8,848 bases of DNA from Nitrospira sp. (GTDB lineage Bacteria > Nitrospirota > Nitrospiria > Nitrospirales > Nitrospiraceae). The stretch is taken from assembly GCA_015904045.1 (NCBI GenBank), contig JABMDG010000021.1:14502-23349 (forward strand), read 5' to 3'. Made by a program: the position numbers and the translations under genes. Within the stretch, counting starts at the first letter, position 1. The number at the start of each line of letters is the position of its first letter. The notes beneath the pieces are model-generated. The model made no database searches, was not told the DNA's origin, and worked only from the letters and a program-made list of their open reading frames with translations. Of this stretch, positions 1 to 8,848 are shown in pieces.

Positions 1-228
1 GAGCGCCAGCTCGTTGTATTGCTGTTCAAACATAAGATGAAGCGTCTGGAACATCGGTCCCGTGACATTCCAATGGAAGTTATGCGTCTTGAGATAGAGC
101 GTATAGGTATCGGCCAGCACCTTCGCCAACCCCTCGGCGATTGCTTTCCGCTGTGCCGGTTCGATCCCGAGATCAATCTGCAGACCGTTTCCGCCCCCTG
201 CTTTTCCCGCACTTCTTGTTTTTTCCAT
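1..228 (-). CDS. dps: Dps-family DNA-binding ferritin-like protein, N-terminal part (3' end outside window)
   Basis: Dps proteins form 12-subunit cages that oxidise Fe(II) with hydrogen peroxide, store the iron and often bind DNA during starvation or oxidative stress. The 76 visible residues contain the Dps hallmark [14 protein letters not shown] (about 47-60), followed by [15 protein letters not shown]. The visible ferroxidase-site ligands are H52, H64 and E68, aligning with E. coli H51, H63 and D67; Glu at the third position is seen in other members of this subgroup. The remaining ligands lie outside the window. A glycine- and lysine-rich N-terminal tail (about residues 4-15) is the sort of extension that binds DNA in some Dps proteins. 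The ATG at 226-228 follows two AAGGA Shine-Dalgarno cores (237-241 and 233-237), which fixes the start. The gene is divergent from oxyR, a classical regulator of dps, so peroxide induction is likely. The identification is firm; the role in DNA binding is inferred. Confidence 0.93.
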
Positions 229-276
229 GGTTTCCTTCCTTCAGCAAAGCCCCGTTTCGTAGCTTGCCGATCTTCT

Positions 277-304
277 CTTATCATGACTCCTACCATTGAC
301 TCAA
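277..304 (-). promoter_or_regulatory. possible sigma-70-like dps promoter
   Basis: Read on the minus strand there is a TTGAGT box (299-304) and, 16 bases further, GATAAG (277-282); an 18-base spacing gives TAAGAG instead. The candidate is about 50 nt upstream of the dps start codon. The -10 match is mediocre. The -35 box lies inside the inverted repeat at 289-312, so a protein bound to the repeat would affect this promoter. Tentative. Confidence 0.3.
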
Positions 305-312
305 TCGGTAGG
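289..312. repeat. bulged 11-bp inverted repeat in the dps promoter region
   Basis: CCTACC (289-294) and ATTGA (295-299) are mirrored by TCAAT (301-305) and GGTAGG (307-312). The centre base is C300, and a single unpaired C306 breaks the right arm. All 11 base pairs match. It overlaps the candidate -35 box of dps and has no T-run on either side, so an operator is more likely than a terminator. The regulator is unknown; it does not look like an OxyR site. Confidence 0.5.
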
Positions 313-459
313 TAATCTCGACGTTGTTCCTCCCAGGAAAGGCCACTACTATCTTGCGTAGACAACGCGATCGTATTGGCGCCGGCACTCCCGACAAGCA
401 ACACTCATAACATCCTCCATGTTGTAAGGGACATGCCGCGAATTTCTGCGCGCTTCATT

Positions 460-480
460 TCAAGGGTAACCGGCCCTTGA
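460..480. repeat. 7-bp perfect inverted repeat upstream of oxyR
   Basis: TCAAGGG (460-466) is mirrored by CCCTTGA (474-480) around a 7-base loop. It lies 14 bp before the palindromes near oxyR. No U-run follows on either strand, so it is not a standard intrinsic terminator. It could be an operator or a leader hairpin; a chance occurrence is possible. Confidence 0.35.
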
Positions 481-494
481 GCATTAGTCCAATT

Positions 495-530
495 GATAGT
501 ATATTATCGCCCAATAAGTATAGCTTATTG
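495..530. promoter_or_regulatory. candidate LysR/OxyR operator: two adjacent palindromes
   Basis: The first element, GATAGTATATTATC (495-508), matches its own reverse complement at 12 of 14 positions. The second is a perfect repeat, CAATAAG (512-518), TATAG, CTTATTG (524-530). Their centres are 19.5 bp apart, close to two helical turns, as expected for an OxyR tetramer touching four half-sites. The second element matches 7 of 10 defined positions of the E. coli 15-bp OxyR motif. It ends 15 bp before the oxyR start and overlaps a TTGATA box (493-498) that could be a -35 element, so negative autoregulation by OxyR is the simplest reading. Confidence 0.55.
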
Positions 531-545
531 AAAGAGAGGCAGGAT

Positions 546-1454
546 ATGACTCTGACGGAACTGCACTACATCGTCGCAGTAGCTCAAGAACGTCACTTCG
601 GCCGTGCGGCCGAGCGAGTCTTTGTCACACAACCGGCCCTGAGTCTTGCGATCAAGAAGCTGGAGGAAGAGTTGGGCTTGACGATTTTTGATCGGCGCCA
701 AAACCGGATCGAACTGACGGCGATCGGGGACAAGATCGTCCATCAGGCTCAGCGCGTGCTGGAAGAAGCGGAACAAATTAAGATCCTCGCGACTCAAGGC
801 AAAGATCATTTGAACGGACCTTTGCGGCTCGGTGTCATCGCGACCGTCGGGCCCTATATCTTGCCGGACCTGGTTCCGCAGTTGAGCGCACGCGCACCCA
901 AAATGCCGCTGGAGCTGGAAGAAAATCTGACACTTAATTTGACCGGCATGCTGAAAAACGGAAAACTGGACGTGATCATGATCGCTCTGCCCTTCGACGA
1001 GCCGGCAATCGTCACCCAGGCCCTGTACGACGAACCGTTCAAAGTACTGGTTCCGACCGGGCATCCCTGGCAGAAAAAGAAACTGATCGATTCACGGCAA
1101 TTGGGATCAGAAAAGGTGCTCCTACCGCACGCAGGCCACTGTTTTCGGCAACAGGTTCTGGACGCCTGCCCCGAACTCAGCCGATCGGACGCCGAAGGCT
1201 GGCAAGGCAATTCTCTGGAGACGATCAGGCAGATGGTTGCTTCAGGTCTGGGCATCACCGTGATGCCTTCCAGCGCCCTCACGTCGAAATACGACAGCGC
1301 TCGGTTGGTCGCCATCAACCTGGCGAAACCAGTGCCCGGTCGTCGAATTGGACTCGCCTGGCGGCGCGGCTTCACACGGCCCCGCGTCATCGACACCATT
1401 CGCGATGCCGTCCACGCACTTAAGATACCCTGCCTGACGATGGTGACGCACTGA
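546..1454 (+). CDS. oxyR: OxyR, hydrogen peroxide-sensing LysR-type regulator
   Basis: The product is 302 residues, close to the usual OxyR length of about 305. Residues 1-60 form the winged helix-turn-helix (TLTELHYIVAVAQERHFGRA, then TQPALSLAIKKLEEELG). The rest is the LysR-type sensor domain. The two redox cysteines, C199 and C208 (GHCFRQQVLDAC), fall on exactly the E. coli numbers, with eight residues between them; T100 in the GVIATVGPY segment is also kept. In characterised OxyR, peroxide converts these cysteines to a disulfide that changes DNA binding and activates dps, catalase and peroxidase genes. I chose ATG 546 because the LysR family begins here and GAGAGG sits 7-9 nt upstream. 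An in-frame TTG at 477 would add 23 unrelated residues and run through the operator. Divergent dps and downstream xth support the role. Confidence 0.95.
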   Translation: MTLTELHYIVAVAQERHFGRAAERVFVTQPALSLAIKKLEEELGLTIFDRRQNRIELTAIGDKIVHQAQRVLEEAEQIKILATQGKDHLNGPLRLGVIATVGPYILPDLVPQLSARAPKMPLELEENLTLNLTGMLKNGKLDVIMIALPFDEPAIVTQALYDEPFKVLVPTGHPWQKKKLIDSRQLGSEKVLLPHAGHCFRQQVLDACPELSRSDAEGWQGNSLETIRQMVASGLGITVMPSSALTSKYDSARLVAINLAKPVPGRRIGLAWRRGFTRPRVIDTIRDAVHALKIPCLTMVTH

Positions 1455-1465
1455 GGCACGCCCGC

Positions 1466-1494
1466 TTGTTGCCCTCCCCCGCTTTTGCTAGGAT
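1466..1494 (+). promoter_or_regulatory. possible sigma-70-like xth promoter
   Basis: TTGTTG (1466-1471) is followed after exactly 17 bases by TAGGAT (1489-1494). Transcription would start near 1501, leaving a leader of only about 12 nt before the xth ATG at 1513. This agrees with the lack of a good Shine-Dalgarno sequence in front of that ATG. Tentative, because xth could also be cotranscribed with oxyR across the 58-nt gap. Confidence 0.4.
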
Positions 1495-1512
1495 GCGCTC
1501 GCCTAACCTCAC

Positions 1513-2286
1513 ATGAAAATCGCTACGTTCAACGTCAACTCGCTCCGCAAACGCCTCCCCATCGTGCTGGAGTGGCTCGACCGCCAGAAGCCCGATGTCC
1601 TCTGTCTCCAAGAAACGAAAGTGCAAGATAGCGAGTTCCCGCTACTGGCCTTGACACCGTCCGGCTATGAAATCACCTACCGCGGCATGAAGTCGTACAA
1701 CGGGGTGGCCATTCTCAGTCGCAAAAAACCCGAGGCGGTGTTTTATGGATTCGACGACGGAGGAGAACCGGAGGACGCCCGCTTGCTTAGAGTCGTGATC
1801 GACGGCATTCCCATCGTGAATACCTATGTGCCGCAGGGCTTTGAGATCGACTCGCCGAAGTACGCCTACAAATTGGGATGGTACGAGCGGTTGCGGAAAT
1901 ATTTCGACAAGCACCTTGTACCGCAAGCGCCGGCGATTTGGTGCGGAGACATGAACGTGGCGCCTCGGCCAATGGACGTGCACAGCCCGGAAAAACACCT
2001 GAACCATGTCTGCTACCATGAAGCGGCCCGGAAGGCGTATGAACAGACGCTTGCGTGGGGATTCCAAGACGTATTTGTGAAATTGTATCCGACACGGCAG
2101 CAGTACACGTTCTGGGACTATCGGGCGCCGGGTTCGCTGGAGGCCAACAAAGGATGGAGGATCGACCACATTCTCTCGACAAGGCCGCTGGCGGAGAAAT
2201 GTGTGCGGGCTGATGTGGACGTCGGGCCGCGGCGAGCAAAAGACCCCTCAGATCATACCTTTCTCTGGGCGGAGTTCTCGATCTGA
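1513..2286 (+). CDS. xth: exodeoxyribonuclease III / AP endonuclease
   Basis: Exonuclease III cleaves DNA at abasic sites and removes blocked 3' ends left by oxidative damage, opening base-excision repair in the cytoplasm. The product is 257 residues, about the length of the E. coli enzyme (268). The Mg-dependent exonuclease-endonuclease-phosphatase fold is complete. N7 lies in FNVNSLRKR, E34 in LQETKVQD, Y105 in NTYVPQG, and D146/N148 in WCGDMNVAP. WRIDHI (215-220) and PSDH (245-248) supply the late Asp and His catalytic residues. The start is fixed by the family N-terminus (MKIATFNVNS). There is no clear Shine-Dalgarno sequence, which suggests a near-leaderless transcript from the candidate promoter at 1466-1494. 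The position after oxyR and dps fits repair of peroxide-damaged DNA. Whether OxyR controls it cannot be seen here. Confidence 0.95.
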   Translation: MKIATFNVNSLRKRLPIVLEWLDRQKPDVLCLQETKVQDSEFPLLALTPSGYEITYRGMKSYNGVAILSRKKPEAVFYGFDDGGEPEDARLLRVVIDGIPIVNTYVPQGFEIDSPKYAYKLGWYERLRKYFDKHLVPQAPAIWCGDMNVAPRPMDVHSPEKHLNHVCYHEAARKAYEQTLAWGFQDVFVKLYPTRQQYTFWDYRAPGSLEANKGWRIDHILSTRPLAEKCVRADVDVGPRRAKDPSDHTFLWAEFSI

Positions 2287-2316
2287 CCACGCACGCGACG
2301 CCCACTCCCCGCCCCA

Positions 2317-2350
2317 TCCGATCACACGCCTAACCACGCCCGTGATCGGA
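2317..2350. repeat. 9-bp perfect inverted repeat between convergent genes
   Basis: TCCGATCAC (2317-2325) is mirrored perfectly by GTGATCGGA (2342-2350) around a 16-base loop. It sits between the 3' ends of xth (plus) and the small zinc-ribbon gene (minus). No T-run follows on either strand, so it is not a textbook intrinsic terminator. Its position suggests an end-of-transcript hairpin or an mRNA 3'-end stabiliser serving both genes. Confidence 0.45.
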
Positions 2351-2374
2351 AGGAACCGACACAACGCATGTGCC

Positions 2375-2545
2375 TTACGCGGCGTGGAGCAACGCAGCTT
2401 TTTCCCGAAGATGATTGAGGCGATTCTGCAACAGCAACGGATCGAGGATCAGTCCGCAATTGATGCATCGATGAATGATCGTGCCGGGCGACAGTTCCGG
2501 TTGCCGCTCTTCGATCATAAGGCCTCTGCACTTTTGACAGGTCAT
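2375..2545 (-). CDS. 56-residue zinc-ribbon-like protein with two CxxC pairs
   Basis: This short gene encodes 56 residues beginning MTCQKCRGLMIEERQPELSP. It has one CxxC at residues 3-6 (CQKC) and another at 27-30 (CINC, followed by GLILDP). This is the pattern of a single zinc ribbon or rubredoxin-like knuckle binding one metal ion. The rest is a basic, leucine-rich helix (about 37-55). The start at 2545 is preceded by a perfect AGGAGGT (2551-2557) with five bases before the ATG, which is strong evidence that the gene is real. It is convergent with xth and divergent from the FAD oxidoreductase. I do not know its function. Similar tiny CxxC proteins act as transcription or translation accessory factors or remain uncharacterised; DNA, RNA or protein binding is only a guess. 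Confidence 0.8.
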   Translation of the reverse strand: MTCQKCRGLMIEERQPELSPGTIIHRCINCGLILDPLLLQNRLNHLREKAALLHAA

Positions 2546-2617
2546 GGATTACCTCCTGCTCCCATGCTCATGCTATTGAATCCCCCTGAACATGGAGGGC
2601 ACGGTAACATCGTGAGA

Positions 2618-2643
2618 TTAAACCCGTGTTAACAGGCAGTTAA
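2618..2643. repeat. three TTAA boxes at exact 11-bp spacing before the oxidoreductase start
   Basis: TTAA occurs at 2618-2621, 2629-2632 and 2640-2643, each 11 bp from the next, so all three face the same side of the helix. They lie in the 100-bp region between two divergent genes and end two bases before the GTG start codon at 2646. This may be a protein-binding site for either gene, or simply an AT-rich promoter segment. The remaining intergenic bases (2546-2617) show only the AGGAGGT of the zinc-ribbon gene. Confidence 0.3.
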
Positions 2644-2645
2644 AA

Positions 2646-3938
2646 GTGTCTAATGTGGAGGCATCCGGTGCCTGCGATGTCGCTGTCGTCGGTGCTGGCG
2701 CGGCAGGGCTGACCGCCTCGATTGTCGCGGGAGAATGTGCTGGGGGTAAGACGGGACGCAGCATCGTGCTGCTGGACGGCGCGAACCGCATCGGCGCGAA
2801 GATCCTCGTCTCGGGCGGCGGGCGCTGCAACGTCACACATGACGCCGTCACGCCGAGCGACTACTTCGGGAATCGCCGCATTATCAAAAACGTGCTGGCG
2901 GCCTTCTCCGCAGCAGACACCGTCGAGTGGTTCGCCTCGATGGGCGTCACGCTCAAACGCGAAGACACCGGCAAACTGTTTCCCGTCACCGACACAGCCA
3001 GAACAGTGCTCACCGCGCTGGTGACGCGAGCCCGCACGCTAGGCATCACCATCCGGACCGGCCATCGCGTGTCAGGTCTGGAGAAGTCCGTGAACGCTGG
3101 ATTCGTCCTCCAGCACAGCCATGGCTCTCTCAACGCGAAGAACGTCATCCTGGCGACCGGCGGCCGGTCGATTCCAAGATCGGGGAGCGATGGCTTCGGG
3201 TACAGCCTGGCCCGTCGGCTTGGCCATTCTGTCACGACCACCGTTCCAGCGCTCGTGCCGCTGGTGCTCGATGCCAAAATGTTTCACCAATCGCTCTCCG
3301 GCCTCTCGCAGGAGATCACGCTGTCGACGACCGTCAATGGACACACCGCTGATACGCGGACCGGCAGTTTGCTCTGGACACACTTCGGGATTAGCGGTCC
3401 CGTCGTCATGGATGCCAGCCGGTTCTGGACTCTCGCTCGTGAACGAGGAGAGGACGCCCTCGTCCACGCGAACTTCCTGCCTGGCCAGACACCAGAGCAG
3501 GTGCGTGCGTGGTTCGTGCATGAGGCTTCCCATCGCCCACGCCGATCGCTTGTCAACACGTTGGCCTTGCGTGTCCCTGAACGGTTTGCCGAAGCACTCT
3601 GCCGACACGTCGGATGCTCCCCGCAACAGGCCGTCGCGCAAGTCTGCCGAGCCGACCGAGAACGGCTGCTGACCGCGCTCACGAGATTGGCGCTGCCCAT
3701 CGAACGAGAGCGCGGCTGGAACTACGCGGAAGTGACGGCCGGCGGCGTGCCGCTGGAAGAGATCGACTACCGGACGATGGAGTCGAAGCTTGTGCCCGGC
3801 TTGTATCTCGTCGGCGAGATCCTCGATTGTGACGGACGCATCGGCGGCTTCAACTTCCAATGGGCCTGGGCCACGGGCTTCTTGGCAGGGAGAGCCGCCG
3901 CCGGCCTCGGACCTCGAAGAGGGCACCTTGTGCCCTGA
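2646..3938 (+). CDS. FAD-dependent oxidoreductase, HI0933/YhiN/BaiN family
   Basis: This 430-residue protein is a full-length member of the HI0933 flavoprotein family (typically 390-430 residues). It carries a Rossmann dinucleotide motif, VVGAGAAG (14-21), then an acidic residue ending the second strand (LLD, 42-44). It also carries SGGGRCNVTH (56-65), which contacts FAD in this family, ATGG (170-173), SGSDGFGYSLA, the THFGISGP segment (245-252) and the C-terminal GEILDCDGRIGGFNFQWAWATG signature that closes the flavin site. The family is cytoplasmic. BaiN has been linked to bile-acid dehydroxylation, but substrates of most members are unknown, so I give no symbol. The GTG at 2646 has only a weak AGG nine bases upstream; a GTG at 2655 is an alternative that also keeps the whole fold. 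It is divergent from the zinc-ribbon gene, and no neighbour points to a substrate. Confidence 0.88.
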   Translation: MSNVEASGACDVAVVGAGAAGLTASIVAGECAGGKTGRSIVLLDGANRIGAKILVSGGGRCNVTHDAVTPSDYFGNRRIIKNVLAAFSAADTVEWFASMGVTLKREDTGKLFPVTDTARTVLTALVTRARTLGITIRTGHRVSGLEKSVNAGFVLQHSHGSLNAKNVILATGGRSIPRSGSDGFGYSLARRLGHSVTTTVPALVPLVLDAKMFHQSLSGLSQEITLSTTVNGHTADTRTGSLLWTHFGISGPVVMDASRFWTLARERGEDALVHANFLPGQTPEQVRAWFVHEASHRPRRSLVNTLALRVPERFAEALCRHVGCSPQQAVAQVCRADRERLLTALTRLALPIERERGWNYAEVTAGGVPLEEIDYRTMESKLVPGLYLVGEILDCDGRIGGFNFQWAWATGFLAGRAAAGLGPRRGHLVP

Positions 3939-4211
3939 CGTGCGATCCTCCGAGGTAACGCGCATCGATATGGCGGTTCGTGGCAACATCACGCAGTCGC
4001 GTTGCGAGACGGGCACGCTGAGTTCCGAGGAACCGTGGCATAGTTGAAACCGAATGCCGAGGTTGCGAGGAGCGAGCCCGCCCGCGAAGGCTCGTCCCAA
4101 AAGCGACTCCGCGCTTGCAGCAGAGTGTTCATGAATGATGCGGATTAGAGTAACCGCCAGTGGAGCTCTGGCCCCCAAAAGGTGATTCACTCACAACAAC
4201 CGGAGGGAATG
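3939..4211. other. intergenic region before sixA, no convincing gene
   Basis: This is 273 bp between two plus-strand genes. A 25-codon reading frame (3970-4047) lacks a placed Shine-Dalgarno sequence and family resemblance, so I do not call it. The region contains the hairpin at 4073-4094 and an imperfect GCCAG/CTGGC repeat near 4160. I found no clear sigma-70 promoter for sixA. Confidence 0.6.
4073..4094. repeat. GC-rich hairpin (CGAGCC/GGCTCG)
   Basis: CGAGCC (4073-4078) and GGCTCG (4089-4094) form a perfect 6-bp stem with a 10-base loop, downstream of the FAD oxidoreductase. Four A residues follow (4099-4102), but there is no T-run on the plus strand. It may mark the 3' end of that transcript or be one copy of a dispersed palindromic element; copy number cannot be judged from one window. 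Confidence 0.35.
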
Positions 4212-4748
4212 ATGGATTGCCTGCTCGTTCGGCACGGGATTGCGATCGAATCCGAGAATTGGGATGGTTCGGAAGAGAATCGTCCCCTGACTGAGAAGGG
4301 AAGGAAGCGCGTCCGCCAAGCGGCAGCGGGACTGGCGGCGCTCGGCTGCAAGCCGACCCACTTGTGCAGCAGTCCGTTTGTCCGCGCCTACGGCACGGCC
4401 CGTCTGTTGCGCACCACGCTCTGTCCGACACTCAAGGTTGAGACGCGCGACGAACTCGCTGTCGGCGCGTCCTTCGAGCAGATCCTGTTATTCCTCCGCT
4501 CGTGTCCGGCAGATTCGATGGTCGTCTGCGTGGGCCATGAACCGCTGCTGGGTGAACTGGCGGGCGTATTGCTGTGCGGGAAACCAATCACGGGCATGTC
4601 GCTTAAAAAATCCGGGGCAGCCCTCATCCACTTGCCGGACGGGCCCAAGCCAGGCCAGGGGATTCTCCGTTGGTGGCTTCAGCCGATGCACTTGCGGGTC
4701 TTGGGGAAAAGAATGTCCGCGGAAACTGAGGAGGACGGCGGTGCTTAG
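4212..4748 (+). CDS. sixA: SixA-type phosphohistidine phosphatase (histidine phosphatase superfamily)
   Basis: The product is 178 residues, slightly longer than E. coli SixA (161). It has the catalytic RHG at 7-9 (LLVRHGIA), where H8 takes the phosphate. It also has CSSPFVRA (52-59) with the second phosphate-binding arginine, and VGHEPLLGEL (107-116) with the second catalytic histidine H109. E. coli SixA dephosphorylates phosphohistidine on the phosphotransferase protein NPr and was first reported on ArcB. Relatives in other phyla often sit beside CHAD and polyphosphate genes. I chose ATG 4212 because GGAGGG (4202-4207) is four bases upstream; the adjacent ATG 4209 is too close, and GTG 4182 adds ten unrelated residues. 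Its TAG stop overlaps the TAA of the convergent kinase-like gene. Superfamily membership is firm; the phosphohistidine substrate is inferred from the compact SixA-like form. Confidence 0.87.
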   Translation: MDCLLVRHGIAIESENWDGSEENRPLTEKGRKRVRQAAAGLAALGCKPTHLCSSPFVRAYGTARLLRTTLCPTLKVETRDELAVGASFEQILLFLRSCPADSMVVCVGHEPLLGELAGVLLCGKPITGMSLKKSGAALIHLPDGPKPGQGILRWWLQPMHLRVLGKRMSAETEEDGGA

Positions 4749-5467
4749 GCCGGGACCTGTTCCGAGGCCCCCGCGCGTTTGTGGCCTGGCAGGACGGGCA
4801 AGATATGCCCCCGAAGTTCTTCCTGAATCTCTTCGGGAGACTTTCTGGCATCGACGACATTGAAGCGGAATTCTTCCGCCATTTTGTCGAATTCTTCGAT
4901 CAGCAACGACTGATATTTCTTGAAGCTCTCATAGAGGTCGGCTCCCAGCCGGAGATCCATGCCGGATTCCCAGTAATTCATGCCCGTGGTTTCGATAACC
5001 CGCAGCGCCAGAGTTTCCACGTCGATACGCAAATAACAAACGAGATCCGGGATCAAGGCGAACCCGAACACGTCACGAATCCACTTGCGATCGCCGCTTC
5101 GCACAAAGTCCCGCGCGAAGGCCGTGTAGATATAGCGATCGGCCAGCACAATAAATCCCGAGCGAAGGGCGGGTATGATCTGATGCTCGAGGCGATCCGC
5201 GAAATCGGTCGCATACAGCAGGCTGAGCGACCAGCGGTCAAGAATGTTGCCGGCCTTTGCCACCTCGATCGTCTTGGACATTAGATTCGACCTCGTCCAT
5301 CCGGTCGTGATGACGCCGTAGCCTTGCACCTCAAGCCATTCCTGCAACATCTCGATGTGCGTCGACCGTCCGACGCCGTCCGTGCCTTCGATGGCGATAA
5401 GCTTCCCTTTCAGGTCACTCGGATTTAGGTACGTCAAACCGTCGCCAAAAAAGCGTCCGTCGGCCAT
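4745..5467 (-). CDS. thymidylate-kinase-like P-loop protein with Arg replacing the Walker A Lys
   Basis: This 240-residue protein has the thymidylate kinase fold. A short N-terminal extension (1-20) is followed by KLIAIEGTDGVGRSTH (22-37), where the P-loop reads GTDGVGRST and R34 (codon CGG) stands where kinases need Lys. Then come LLYATDFADRLEHQI (83-97), the DRY motif at 110-112 (VLADRYIYTAFARD) and YWESGMDLRLG (165-175). The REPG-type phosphate-contact segment of true thymidylate kinases is replaced by TTGWTRSNL. It is clearly paralogous to the upstream gene and translated from an ATG inside it, with GAGGG (5473-5477) about five bases before the start; the two genes overlap by 53 nt. Since the essential Lys is altered, it may be catalytically weak, use Arg, or act as a regulatory subunit. 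Cellular dTMP kinase activity should not be assigned to it. Substrate unknown. Confidence 0.85.
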   Translation of the reverse strand: MADGRFFGDGLTYLNPSDLKGKLIAIEGTDGVGRSTHIEMLQEWLEVQGYGVITTGWTRSNLMSKTIEVAKAGNILDRWSLSLLYATDFADRLEHQIIPALRSGFIVLADRYIYTAFARDFVRSGDRKWIRDVFGFALIPDLVCYLRIDVETLALRVIETTGMNYWESGMDLRLGADLYESFKKYQSLLIEEFDKMAEEFRFNVVDARKSPEEIQEELRGHILPVLPGHKRAGASEQVPA

Positions 5468-6164
5468 AGGTCCCTCGTTTCGGTTTGTAGCCGCGGAGCG
5501 CGTCCTGCACTAGCGTCCGCATCTGTTCCTGCTGCGCCTCAATATCCAGGGTCGCGTCCATGGTCAAGAGGCCGAACTCCTCCACGATCTTCTCGTACTC
5601 GGCCAGTATTTGCGACTGAAACAACCGGAAACTCTCCGTGATGTCGGGACTGAGGTTCATGTCCATGCCCGCTTCATAATACTTGAATTGCCCGCGCGTG
5701 CCGCGCAGCAGCCGGGAGATGGCCACTTCGATCGGCACCCGGTAGTAGAACGCCATGTCCGGCTTGATGGCAAAGCTGTACAGCTTGCGCACCCAATCGC
5801 GTGACACCCCGCGCACCACATCGCGGGCGAACGCCGTGTACATGTACCGATCGGCCAGCACGAGCATGCCGGCTTTCAAGGGAGGAAGAATCTGGTGATA
5901 GAGCCGGCTGGCGAAATCCGTCGCATGGAGCAGGCTGAACGTCGTCGGCGTCAGGCTCTTCGTTTTTTTGCCCCGCTTGGTGGTGTCTTTGACGAGATCG
6001 GAGGAATTCCATTCCGTGAAGAATACCTTGTAGCCCTTGGACTCCAGCCACTTGAGCAACAACAACGACTGCGTGCTCTTCCCGGAGCCGTCGATTCCTT
6101 CGACAATGATGAGCTTCCCGGGATAGGGATGGCGCGCACCCTTAATGCCAGCCGGCTCGGTCAT
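5415..6164 (-). CDS. thymidylate-kinase-like protein with intact P-loop
   Basis: This 249-residue protein belongs to the thymidylate kinase fold family (usual length about 210, so there are extra residues at both ends). Visible elements are KLIIVEGIDGSGKSTQ (17-32) with the intact Walker A GIDGSGKST, FTEWNSSDLVKD (49-60) in place of the usual REPGGT loop, LLHATDFASRLYHQI (78-92), the DRY motif at 105-107 (VLADRYMYTAFARDVVRG) and YYEAGMDMNLSPD (162-174). It resembles its downstream partner through these blocks. A basic tail (226-242) overlaps the next gene. The ATG at 6164 has AAGGAG (6170-6175) five bases upstream and shares ATGA with the stop of the previous gene, so translational coupling is likely. 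It may be a nucleoside monophosphate kinase, but the changed substrate loop makes dTMP uncertain. A genome normally has a separate canonical tmk. Confidence 0.87.
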   Translation of the reverse strand: MTEPAGIKGARHPYPGKLIIVEGIDGSGKSTQSLLLLKWLESKGYKVFFTEWNSSDLVKDTTKRGKKTKSLTPTTFSLLHATDFASRLYHQILPPLKAGMLVLADRYMYTAFARDVVRGVSRDWVRKLYSFAIKPDMAFYYRVPIEVAISRLLRGTRGQFKYYEAGMDMNLSPDITESFRLFQSQILAEYEKIVEEFGLLTMDATLDIEAQQEQMRTLVQDALRGYKPKRGTYGRRTLFWRRFDVPKSE

Positions 6165-7432
6165 GGCGACTCCTTCTCATCCAATATTTTGGAAAACCGC
6201 ACGCGCTTCCGGAACACCTGCTGAAATAAGTCCGCCCGGTTTTTGGCCGCCCACAGCTCCATCTCCGCATCGCCCGTCACCGTCGCTTCGATCGTCATCA
6301 TCTTTCCTGCTTTCACACTCACGGTCCGTACCACCGAAAAATGGGTTCGATCGAGCCCGTCGGCGACTCGCAGCAGAGCCGACAGGATTCGCACCACGCG
6401 CTTCAAGCGGGGAGTCAAACTCTCAAACCCCTGATGTCTGAGCCCCGGCACCGCCCGTCGATGGTAGCGGGCAACGTTGGCGATCACCTCGATGTCGTCC
6501 GCGGTCAACCCTCCGAGATCGCTGTTCATGATCAGATAATAGGCATGCTTGTGATGCTGCCGGGGATTGATGAGGTAGCCGATATCATGCAGGATGGCGG
6601 CGTATTCGAGCCAGCCGCGCTCCTGCGGGCCCAGTCCGTGCAGCCGTTTGGTCTGGTCGAACAAGCGGAGCGCCAGATCGGCGACATGCAAGGAATGGAC
6701 TTCGGGAGCGTGGCAGCGCCGAGCCAGCCCGATGACGTTGCGACGCCGCACGTCGGGGATTTCAGTCTCGGCCTTGAGCCCTTCGCGGTGTTTGGCGATA
6801 AAGTCGTAAATCACCCCCTCGCGAATGGCCTTGTCGCACAGCGTCATCTCGTCTTGACCGGTCAACTCCAGCAGACGCCGGAGCACGACGGCAGCAGGCA
6901 GCAAGGTATCCACGCGCTTGGGATCGAGGCCGGGAAGCGCCAACCTGGCCTTCAACGAAGAGCGAGCCAGCTCTGTTTCGAGCAGGCGCAGATCTTTCAA
7001 TGCCACCCTGGCCAGATTCTGTTGGGGCAGGGGCCGCCCGGTCTGTTTGAGGCAGATGATGTCGGCCAGGTTGCCGGCCATGCCGGACGTAGCGATGACG
7101 GAATCGAAGGTCTTGGTTTTGAAGTCTTTTAGTTGTTTCGCATTCGCTTCCAATACCGGCAGAGCATCTGTGCGAAGGTGGTCTTGGTCAAAGTCGAACA
7201 GCACATCCATCAACGATTCCTTGACCGATTCCATCTTGTTTCTCGCGGACAATTCGTCGGAACGATCGAGCTTGCGGGCTGCGGCTTCCTTGATGGCCTG
7301 CTCTCTGATTCGTTCTTCCCCAGCCCTCCCTTCTTCACCGGTTCCCGATCCCGATATGGCCGAACAGCCCTGCATCAACAGAACGGCCATCACCGGCGCC
7401 CCGACGATCCATAACACTCGATCTTGTCGCAT
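6161..7432 (-). CDS. chimeric gene: Pal/OmpA-type lipoprotein N-terminus fused to Ppx/GppA-HD C-terminal half
   Basis: The 423-residue product has two unrelated parts. Residues 1-22 are a lipoprotein signal (MRQDR, hydrophobic core, MQGC with C23). Then comes an acidic and basic linker, and LMDVLFDFDQDHLRTDALPVLEANAKQL (about 74-101), the first strand and helix of a Pal/OmpA peptidoglycan-binding domain. From about residue 108, FDSVIATSGMAGNLADI starts the second half of a Ppx/GppA phosphatase. It is followed by GLDPKRVDTLLPA (168-180) and an HD-type helical domain: H246, H249, LHDIGYLI with H282/D283, HHKH (293-296), YH324 and DGLDRTHFS. The actin-like ATPase domain of Ppx/GppA and the peptidoglycan-binding part of Pal are missing. 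GGGGGA is a few bases before ATG 7432. Exopolyphosphatase activity is unlikely without the N-terminal half. A genomic deletion or an assembly join are both possible. Confidence 0.8.
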   Translation of the reverse strand: MRQDRVLWIVGAPVMAVLLMQGCSAISGSGTGEEGRAGEERIREQAIKEAAARKLDRSDELSARNKMESVKESLMDVLFDFDQDHLRTDALPVLEANAKQLKDFKTKTFDSVIATSGMAGNLADIICLKQTGRPLPQQNLARVALKDLRLLETELARSSLKARLALPGLDPKRVDTLLPAAVVLRRLLELTGQDEMTLCDKAIREGVIYDFIAKHREGLKAETEIPDVRRRNVIGLARRCHAPEVHSLHVADLALRLFDQTKRLHGLGPQERGWLEYAAILHDIGYLINPRQHHKHAYYLIMNSDLGGLTADDIEVIANVARYHRRAVPGLRHQGFESLTPRLKRVVRILSALLRVADGLDRTHFSVVRTVSVKAGKMMTIEATVTGDAEMELWAAKNRADLFQQVFRKRVRFSKILDEKESP

Positions 7433-7466
7433 ATGTTCCCCCTTCAAATAGAAAGTGCGTGAGAGT

Positions 7467-8848
7467 CTAGAGCTCAGCAGCTACCGTTTTCATCTGTTCA
7501 TACACTCGGATCACGTCCTTAAACGGCTCCCAGCGGAGTATCGCCAAGGAGTCATCGGCATAGTGCGGTGTGCGCATGCCGTTCAGCACACAGGTCACGC
7601 CGGGCGTGCCGGCAAGAATCCAGAGCGCCTTGCGCGAGAGCGTATCCTGACGGCGCGCTTCGGGCAAGAGCGGGTCGATTGCGCGCGCCACCGCCGCAGT
7701 CCGGGCGCGGCTCCGTTCGGTTGCTTCACGCCGCAACCCCTGCAACAGATTCAGCAGCTCAGGCACATACCGATCGCGCCAGGACTCCCATCGTTCCGAT
7801 GGTTCGCCGGTCAGCAGGCGCGACAGCGTCTGTATGGCTTGGTTGACTTGCGGAGCGATCATTTGGCGCTCAAGCTGCTCCCAATGCTCCAGTCCCTGGA
7901 TTTTCGGACGCACCCTCCGCAATTCATGAGACCAATTGAAGAACTCGTCCGGCGCCGTGCCCTGCTTGTCTTGCTGCACAGCCGGCGCGATCGAGGCGCG
8001 ATATTCTTGTTCAAGCGCGCCGACAGCGTCAAGTTGCCGGGCGACATCGATCGGAGCCTCTTCAAGCGGGAGGTCCGCCAGCCGCATCACCCCGCTGTGT
8101 GGAGCAGGCATGGCGTTCAAGGGCCGGTTCACCAGCACGGCCACGCCTGCCTGTTGCGCATACTCCAGCACAGTCTGCCGGCCGGCGGCGCCGGTATTGG
8201 CCGTCAGAGCGGCTCCCGATTCAAACAGGTTCATCGGGAGTTGCAGCACGCGGAAGTGATGGACGCCGGTGCCTGCCGATTTGGCGGCAGTTTGCGCCGC
8301 GTCAACCATGGCGGCGAGCGAGGTCGCTTCCGGACTATCGGCCGGAGCCGTGACGGTATTCGACGAGACTCCATAGTACTGAAGGCGTCCTGCCGCTACT
8401 TGCAATTCAAAATAGGCGAAGGCCCGCTCAAGCCGGCCATAGAAACCCGCGCGAAGCGCGGCCAGATCCTTCTCGCCCCGGTGCGCGGCTTCCGATAAGA
8501 AGTATTCGGGGTTGTGCAAGAGACAGACATCCAACGTGGCCAGACTGAGTCGATCCAGCGAGAGTGTCAATTGATCCGCCAAGAATTCCGGATGGATGCA
8601 GTGCCAGATGCCGTTTCCGTATTTGACCATCTCAGGATAGGGGCGTCCGGATTTTTCTCTGGCTTCAGCCAGTTTCAAATTTTCCCCCTGCACGTATCCG
8701 ATCTTGGAGACGACGACGATCTCCTCGCGCCGCAATTCGTCTGAAGCGATCAGCTCCGCGAGCACGGATCCCACGGCGCGCTCGCTGTCGCCGTCCATAT
8801 AATTGGTCGAGGTATCGATCACGTTGCAAGACGACCGCAAGGCTTTCT
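7467..8848 (-). CDS. large aldo/keto reductase (5' end outside window)
   Basis: The open frame runs off the right edge, so the N-terminal strand and start are not visible; 460 residues are in the window. The aldo/keto reductase tetrad is present, numbered from the codon at 8838-8840: D9 and Y14 (NVIDTSTNYMDG), K46 (VVVSKIGY) and H109 (CLLHNPEYF). GRLQYYGVSSNT (about 152-163) is a further barrel segment, and TPGVTCVLNGMRTPHYADD near the C-terminus is the usual NADPH-binding end. Ordinary members have about 310-330 residues, so this one is enlarged; the extra sequence (roughly 235-390) is charged, alanine- and arginine-rich and helical. Members reduce carbonyls with NADPH in the cytoplasm; the substrate here is unknown. 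It is the first visible gene of the minus-strand operon, ending 34 nt before the chimeric lipoprotein gene. Confidence 0.88.
   Translation of the reverse strand, partial: KALRSSCNVIDTSTNYMDGDSERAVGSVLAELIASDELRREEIVVVSKIGYVQGENLKLAEAREKSGRPYPEMVKYGNGIWHCIHPEFLADQLTLSLDRLSLATLDVCLLHNPEYFLSEAAHRGEKDLAALRAGFYGRLERAFAYFELQVAAGRLQYYGVSSNTVTAPADSPEATSLAAMVDAAQTAAKSAGTGVHHFRVLQLPMNLFESGAALTANTGAAGRQTVLEYAQQAGVAVLVNRPLNAMPAPHSGVMRLADLPLEEAPIDVARQLDAVGALEQEYRASIAPAVQQDKQGTAPDEFFNWSHELRRVRPKIQGLEHWEQLERQMIAPQVNQAIQTLSRLLTGEPSERWESWRDRYVPELLNLLQGLRREATERSRARTAAVARAIDPLLPEARRQDTLSRKALWILAGTPGVTCVLNGMRTPHYADDSLAILRWEPFKDVIRVYEQMKTVAAEL

What the first reader, a model, noticed from the sequence alone, without database searches (positions are those of the whole stretch)
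6161..7432. Lipoprotein/OmpA start fused in frame to the C-terminal half of a Ppx/GppA-HD phosphatase
Residues 1-103 read as a Pal-type lipoprotein that stops after the first strand and helix of the OmpA domain. From residue 108 the sequence reads as the second half of a Ppx/GppA-HD protein. Neither domain is complete, yet the frame is open and coupled to the next genes. Either a deletion of roughly 0.8-1 kb created a secreted HD protein (odd, since HD phosphatases act on cytoplasmic nucleotides), or two genes were joined by misassembly. If real, this is a new outer-membrane-anchored or mislocalised HD protein and a loss of exopolyphosphatase function.
Basis: partly seen in the sequence, partly recalled or inferred. 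Interest (0 to 1): 0.75.

Follow-up and report, generated by a model that had tools for sequence, protein, structure and literature searches.

The report
Chimeric join of two Nitrospira genes
One open reading frame joins the front of a lipoprotein gene to the back of a polyphosphate-enzyme gene, but its two sides come from different Nitrospira lineages, so it is most likely an assembly chimera or a one-off recombination scar and not a new secreted enzyme.

Summary
The reading of the sequence is right. On the minus strand, 6161-7432 is one open frame: residues 1-102 are a Pal-like lipoprotein cut inside its OmpA domain, and from about residue 104 it is residues 199-517 of a Ppx/GppA-HD protein. 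The interpretation as a new secreted HD protein is not supported. AKR (aldo/keto reductase) - lipoprotein - ppx is a recurrent Nitrospira order (AKR and lipoprotein upstream in 34 of 80 ppx loci), and about 1 kb of it is missing here. The fusion is a one-sequence cluster on one contig. Intact lipoproteins (96-97% over 102 residues) and an intact Ppx (99% over 316) exist. The two sides differ in ancestry exactly at the joint: 1-7124 is 97.3% identical to Nitrospira MAG YR-XLJ-2, whereas 7125-8848 groups with another clade. So the window is a mosaic. I put an assembly chimera first (0.5), a real inter-lineage recombination scar second (0.3), a plain deletion third (0.15). Reads of the source sample would decide; its assembly is not held.

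The parts
6161..7432 (-). Chimeric ORF, 423 aa
7125..7432 (-). 5' part of a Pal-like lipoprotein gene (residues 1-102; lipid-anchor cysteine in LLMQGC by my reading), OmpA domain cut
   Evidence: 96-97% over 102 residues to intact P0121-P0124
7124..7125 (.). Joint between the two ancestries
   Evidence: 38/40 vs 9/40 matching bases either side; end of the G001 alignment at 7124
6161..7124 (-). 3' part of ppx (P0002 residues 199-517): end of domain II, domain III (HD) and C-terminus
7467..8846 (-). C-terminal part of an aldo/keto-reductase gene that runs off the window; neighbour of the lipoprotein gene in relatives; same ancestry as 7125-7432
   Evidence: PF00248; order; tree
5415..6164 (-). 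Thymidylate-kinase-like gene 1, start overlaps the chimeric ORF's stop
   Evidence: PF02223
4745..5467 (-). Thymidylate-kinase-like gene 2
   Evidence: PF02223
1..7124 (.). Stretch of YR-XLJ-2-like ancestry (97.3% identity without a break)
7125..8848 (.). Stretch of the other ancestry (83% to G048, 80% to G017, 77% over its AKR part to the YR-XLJ-2 copy on another contig)

Best explanation
The ORF is a chimeric contig joint, not an evolved gene. The stretch 7125-8848 (AKR and the front of a lipoprotein gene) comes from one Nitrospira lineage in which AKR, lipoprotein and ppx are neighbours. The stretch 1-7124 (back of ppx, tmk-like genes and onward) comes from a second lineage that is near-conspecific with MAG YR-XLJ-2. 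They were joined during metagenome assembly at the ppx region, about 1 kb was dropped, and the frame stayed open by chance (1 in 3 for two genes on one strand). Shown: two ancestries that meet at 7124/7125; about 1 kb missing relative to relatives; one sequence only. Inferred: that the join was made in silico and not in a cell. As a protein it should do nothing useful, since it lacks the first lobe of Ppx and most of the OmpA domain (inference from family knowledge).
For: One-sequence cluster on one contig. In the rows listed for 146 relative genomes no match spans both parts (row list cut). Part 1-7124 is 97.3% identical to G001 C1 and stops at the joint; the G001 counterpart of the AKR side is on another contig at 77%. 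Trees conflict: AKR puts the window with G048+G017 (100/99), PpxC with G001 (100/98); AU rejects window+G001 in AKR (p 2e-54) and window+G048+G017 in PpxC (p 2e-11). The window's AKR is nearer to G048 (0.148) than G017 is (0.185), while for PpxC it is the reverse (0.180 against 0.093). ppx is broken or oddly joined in other public assemblies: G147/L071, a 75-N gap in G086, an unusual N-terminus in P0003.
Against: The kept order lipoprotein then ppx is the natural one, so the join is not blind. There is no N at the joint and, judged from relatives, almost no shared base, which does not fit a k-mer collision. The frame is open. Breaks of ppx elsewhere are not proven misassemblies. The AU test against window+G001+G061+G063 in AKR is only moderate (p 0.0145), and the distance outliers are z -3.0, -2.8 and +2.2. 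G001, G061 and G063 each have different genes upstream of ppx, so this edge does move in evolution.
Confidence: 0.5

Rival explanations
1. The mosaic is real. In a cell, DNA of one Nitrospira lineage replaced the ppx-tmk region of another (or the reverse) by recombination that was homologous on one side and illegitimate at the lipoprotein/ppx side, with about 1 kb lost; or a homologous exchange was followed by a deletion. The product is a scar that has broken both genes.
For: Explains both the kept gene order and the two ancestries. The region upstream of ppx differs among G001, G061 and G063. Homology-facilitated illegitimate recombination is reported with about 1 kb insertions and 1 kb deletions on average (PMC3240628, section 1 part 1).
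Against: That paper reports 3-10 bp micro-homology in most cases, and here the joint seems to share almost none. The process is rare. No second genome with the joint was seen.
Confidence: 0.3
2. A plain deletion of about 1 kb in one genome that had kept the AKR-lipoprotein-ppx order; the conflict with G001 arises because the G001 clade's AKR-lipoprotein is a copy of other origin.
For: Order and size fit. G001, G061 and G063 have three different contexts upstream of ppx, so each could have lost the old neighbours. The AKR rows of the same eight genomes fall together in both trees.
Against: AKR rows of G001, G061 and G063 form one group without the window (100/98), and the window's AKR is too near G048 and G017 for its Ppx distance: ratios 0.82 and 0.87 against a median of 1.34. 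The genomes G001, G061 and G063 show one AKR match each (G063 has a second match row not examined), so two copies are not in evidence.
Confidence: 0.15
3. A functional, lipid-anchored HD protein, made by fusion and kept by selection.
For: Open frame with a lipoprotein start and the HD-region motifs LHDIG and ARYHRR present; 14 of 16 changed codons against YR-XLJ-2 are silent, though that divergence may predate the join; stop-start overlap with the tmk-like gene kept.
Against: One sequence only. Domain II is cut inside the fold and the first lobe is missing.
Confidence: 0.03

Closest known systems
Ppx/GppA exopolyphosphatase (PF02541 + PF21447), e.g. PDB 8jgo, 1u6z
   Same: Back of domain II, HD domain III and C-terminus present; matches 8jgo residues 228-521
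   Different: Residues 1-198 missing, with the DIGTNS, SGTEEA and DVGGGS stretches that align with 8jgo in the intact P0002
Pal-like OmpA-family lipoprotein (PF00691), P0121-P0124
   Same: Lipoprotein start, linker and beginning of the OmpA domain
   Different: About the last 70 of 95 OmpA-domain residues missing
Chimeric metagenome contig between related species
   Same: Ancestry switches at one base position; single occurrence
   Different: No long shared word and no N at the joint
Homology-facilitated illegitimate recombination (PMC3240628, part read)
   Same: Mosaic ancestry and about 1 kb lost
   Different: Almost no micro-homology at the joint; not shown to exist in a cell

Membership tests
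Ppx/GppA phosphatase | Complete two-lobed Ppx-GppA domain PF02541 | tested here: not met
   Only profile positions 175-285 of 285
Ppx/GppA phosphatase | Domain III / HD present | tested here: met
   PF21447 E 2e-27, PF01966 E 2.6e-8
Ppx/GppA phosphatase | Catalytic glutamate region and phosphate loops of the first lobe (role recalled) | tested here: not met
   Those stretches lie in P0002 residues 1-198, absent here
Pal/OmpA-family lipoprotein | Complete OmpA domain PF00691 | tested here: not met
   No hit in the window piece at E <= 1; P0121 has 78-172
Pal/OmpA-family lipoprotein | Signal peptide with lipid-anchor cysteine | tested here: inconclusive
   LLMQGC by reading, shared with intact homologues; no predictor was run
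Established fusion family | Same full-length architecture in independent genomes | tested here: not met
   No other of the 120 listed hits covers more than 83% of the query (3463 hits in all); no listed row spans both parts in 146 genomes (list cut)
Assembly chimera of two lineages | Switch of ancestry at the joint | tested here: met
Assembly chimera of two lineages | No read across the joint, or a coverage step | not testable with these tools
   No reads are available; own assembly not held
Homology-facilitated illegitimate recombination | Micro-homology of 3-10 bp in most cases | tested here: inconclusive
   About none judged from relatives; the exact parent alleles are not held

The most novel reading that the evidence does not exclude
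A real recombination between two Nitrospira species broke an exopolyphosphatase and a Pal-like gene in one step and made an expressed, lipid-anchored HD protein.
Probability: 0.04. Interest if true: 0.6.

Novelty: not a real feature. Interest (0 to 1): 0.12.

Why it matters
As a protein it probably matters little. It shows how a chimeric or recombined metagenome contig can give a convincing in-frame fusion gene, and a test that exposes it: separate trees for the two sides of the joint. If the joint proved real, it would be a direct record of recombination between Nitrospira lineages that are about 80% identical at this locus.

Tried and rejected
Rejected: an established fusion family. Rejected as the leading idea: a plain deletion in place, because AKR and PpxC trees and distances conflict. 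A collision at a shared word was considered (CTTCAAAACCAA looked promising at first), but the lipoprotein relatives do not show it there. In one search the aligner laid the lipoprotein over the N-half of Ppx; I take that as a chance alignment of unrelated proteins and used only the part to the right of the joint. The AKR protein search did not help: the best listed hit is 85%, and the window's own AKR is not listed, probably because the full ORF exceeds the length limit (1217 aa in L009). Of the shorter Ppx, seven were read (P0007, P0014, P0021, P0036, P0062, P0064, P0117) and none has a lipoprotein start. No structure was predicted: a fold would not decide between artefact and event. Literature: searches were seen as listings with abstract starts; of PMC3240628, section 1 part 1 of 5 was read; two searches gave one paper each, seen as listings, neither about a lipoprotein-Ppx fusion.

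Full report
What is there. The minus-strand ORF at 6161-7432 is present as described, and the window has no N. Pfam finds only the end of Ppx-GppA (profile 175-285 of 285), domain III and HD. The N-terminal piece gets no family hit, but its nearest homologues P0121-P0124 are intact 180-aa Pal-like lipoproteins; the one scanned, P0121, has OmpA at 78-172. By my count on the alignment, they differ from the window at 3, 3, 4 and 4 of residues 1-102. After residue 102 P0121 goes on as ERATTRITLEGRGDE, the window as DFKTKTFDSV, which is Ppx P0002 from residue 198 with the first residue changed.

Where the joint is. To the right of 7124/7125, 38 of 40 bases match the ppx of MAG YR-XLJ-2 (JABMDL010000001.1, L005, held as G001 contig C1); to the left 9 of 40 match. 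The two mismatches on the right are silent. The lipoprotein parent seems to end at AAAGA and the ppx parent to begin at CTTC, so almost no base is shared at the joint; this rests on relatives' sequences, because the exact parent alleles are not held.

Normal arrangement. In 80 ppx loci from one scan of species genomes (105 confirmed, best 80 kept), AKR and lipoprotein lie upstream of ppx in 34, AKR alone in 5, lipoprotein alone in 1; 35 have neither, and 5 without either hold less than 2 kb upstream. Ppx starts at residue 1-3 in 78 of 80; the exceptions are L071 (100-N gap) and L074 (contig start). On the 34 loci with a nearly full lipoprotein, 940-1207 bp (median 957.5) lie between the two points that are joined in the window: 979 in L010 (G048), 1088 in L011 (G017); the maximum, L008, includes a 100-N gap.

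How unique it is. In about 5.8 billion clustered proteins the fusion is a cluster of one sequence on one contig of 54,306 bp. The next hit, P0002, is a full 517-aa Ppx cluster of 34 sequences, and no other of the 120 listed hits covers more than 83% of the query (3463 hits in all, from the 7997 candidates sharing most words). In 146 relative genomes, 119 have a match at E <= 1e-10. In the rows listed, Ppx matches start at query residue 93 or later and lipoprotein matches end by residue 108, so no listed row spans both (the row list was cut). Open frames of the listed Ppx matches are 514-637 aa except in G086, G029 and G020. G086 has a 75-N gap at residues 183-193, and G029 runs off its contig end next to an intact lipoprotein. 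G020 was not followed.

Two ancestries. Window 1-7124 aligns without a break to G001 C1 at 97.3% over 7125 columns and stops at the joint; in 250-base bins it is 95-100%, with one bin at 89%. For window 7125-8848, G048 gives 83% and G017 80% over nearly the whole stretch, and G001 77% over the AKR part, on another contig (C16). AKR and PpxC protein trees for the same 24 genomes, which I chose from the loci in hand and partly paired by matching contig lengths and positions, put the window with G048 and G017 (100/99) and with G001 (100/98) respectively. The AU test rejects window+G001 in AKR (p 2e-54) and window+G048+G017 in PpxC (p 2e-11) and, less strongly, window+G001+G061+G063 in AKR (p 0.0145). 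Over 253 pairs without the window, the AKR/PpxC distance ratio has median 1.34 (5-95%: 1.08-1.92; range 0.60-2.51). Window-G048 is 0.82, window-G017 0.87, window-G001 about 32; as residuals from a straight line these are z -3.0, -2.8 and +2.2. So the AKR side is too near one clade and the ppx side too near another for one shared history. That the G001 copy on C16 is a stray contig is unlikely, because G061 and G063 carry the same type (100/98).

Artefact or event. Two facts pull apart. The kept order, lipoprotein then ppx, says that the join is not blind. The lack of shared bases and of N says that it is not a textbook k-mer or scaffold join. For an artefact: ppx is broken or oddly joined in other public assemblies. 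In G147, the genome of L071, ppx residues 1-130 run in frame into what reads as a sirtuin (my reading; no family search), and the C part begins at residue 211 behind 100 N on a record of the same length, 32,127 bp. G086 has the gap named above. P0003 has an N-terminus unlike its neighbours up to a conserved ATSAVREARNGG stretch. None of these is a proven misassembly. For an event: G001, G061 and G063 each have different genes upstream of ppx (a CYTH-CHAD protein; PEP-CTERM-like and other ORFs; Maf-like and other ORFs; the last two names are my reading), so this edge does move in evolution, and homology-facilitated illegitimate recombination is reported to give deletions of about 1 kb (PMC3240628). 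I put a chimera first at 0.5, a real mosaic scar at 0.3, a plain deletion at 0.15 and a functional fusion at 0.03.

Function. From family knowledge (recalled), Ppx needs its first lobe for phosphate binding and catalysis. P0002 aligns there with 8jgo, and chain 8jgt differs from 8jgo at the glutamate after VISG, which would fit a catalytic mutant (inference). The fusion lacks that whole part. Whether a periplasmic HD domain alone could act is unknown; nothing here points to selection for it. A second complete ppx or pal in the window's own genome could not be sought; the near-conspecific G001 has an intact ppx on C1, a lipoprotein of another type on C16, and a weak Ppx-like match on C48.

Noticed in passing
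L134:1489-2601 (G147:C2) and L071:4901-5903: In MAG RSF8 ppx is split: residues 1-130 run in frame into a sirtuin-like sequence, and the C part starts at residue 211 behind a 100-N gap, apparently about 15 kb away on the same record. Either a misjoin or a second odd ppx break.
   Followed up: partly
window 4745-6164, minus strand: Two thymidylate-kinase-like genes in tandem, overlapping, next to ppx; the P-loop of the second reads GTDGVGRS, with arginine for the usual lysine.
   Followed up: no
L009:2-3655; window 7467-8846 is the matching C-terminal part: The AKR is the C-terminal part of a 1217-aa frame that begins with a DUF255/thioredoxin-like domain.
   Followed up: no
L005:2545-4035, minus strand: In YR-XLJ-2 a CYTH-CHAD protein lies divergently upstream of ppx; CHAD domains are linked to polyphosphate (recalled).
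   Followed up: no
L018, L019, L020, L029 upstream of ppx: AKR lies upstream of ppx but no lipoprotein match lies between them, so the lipoprotein gene seems lost or replaced in some lineages.
   Followed up: no
P0003 residues 1 to about 75: The N-terminus differs from all neighbours up to a conserved ATSAVREARNGG stretch, which looks like another chimeric Ppx.
   Followed up: no
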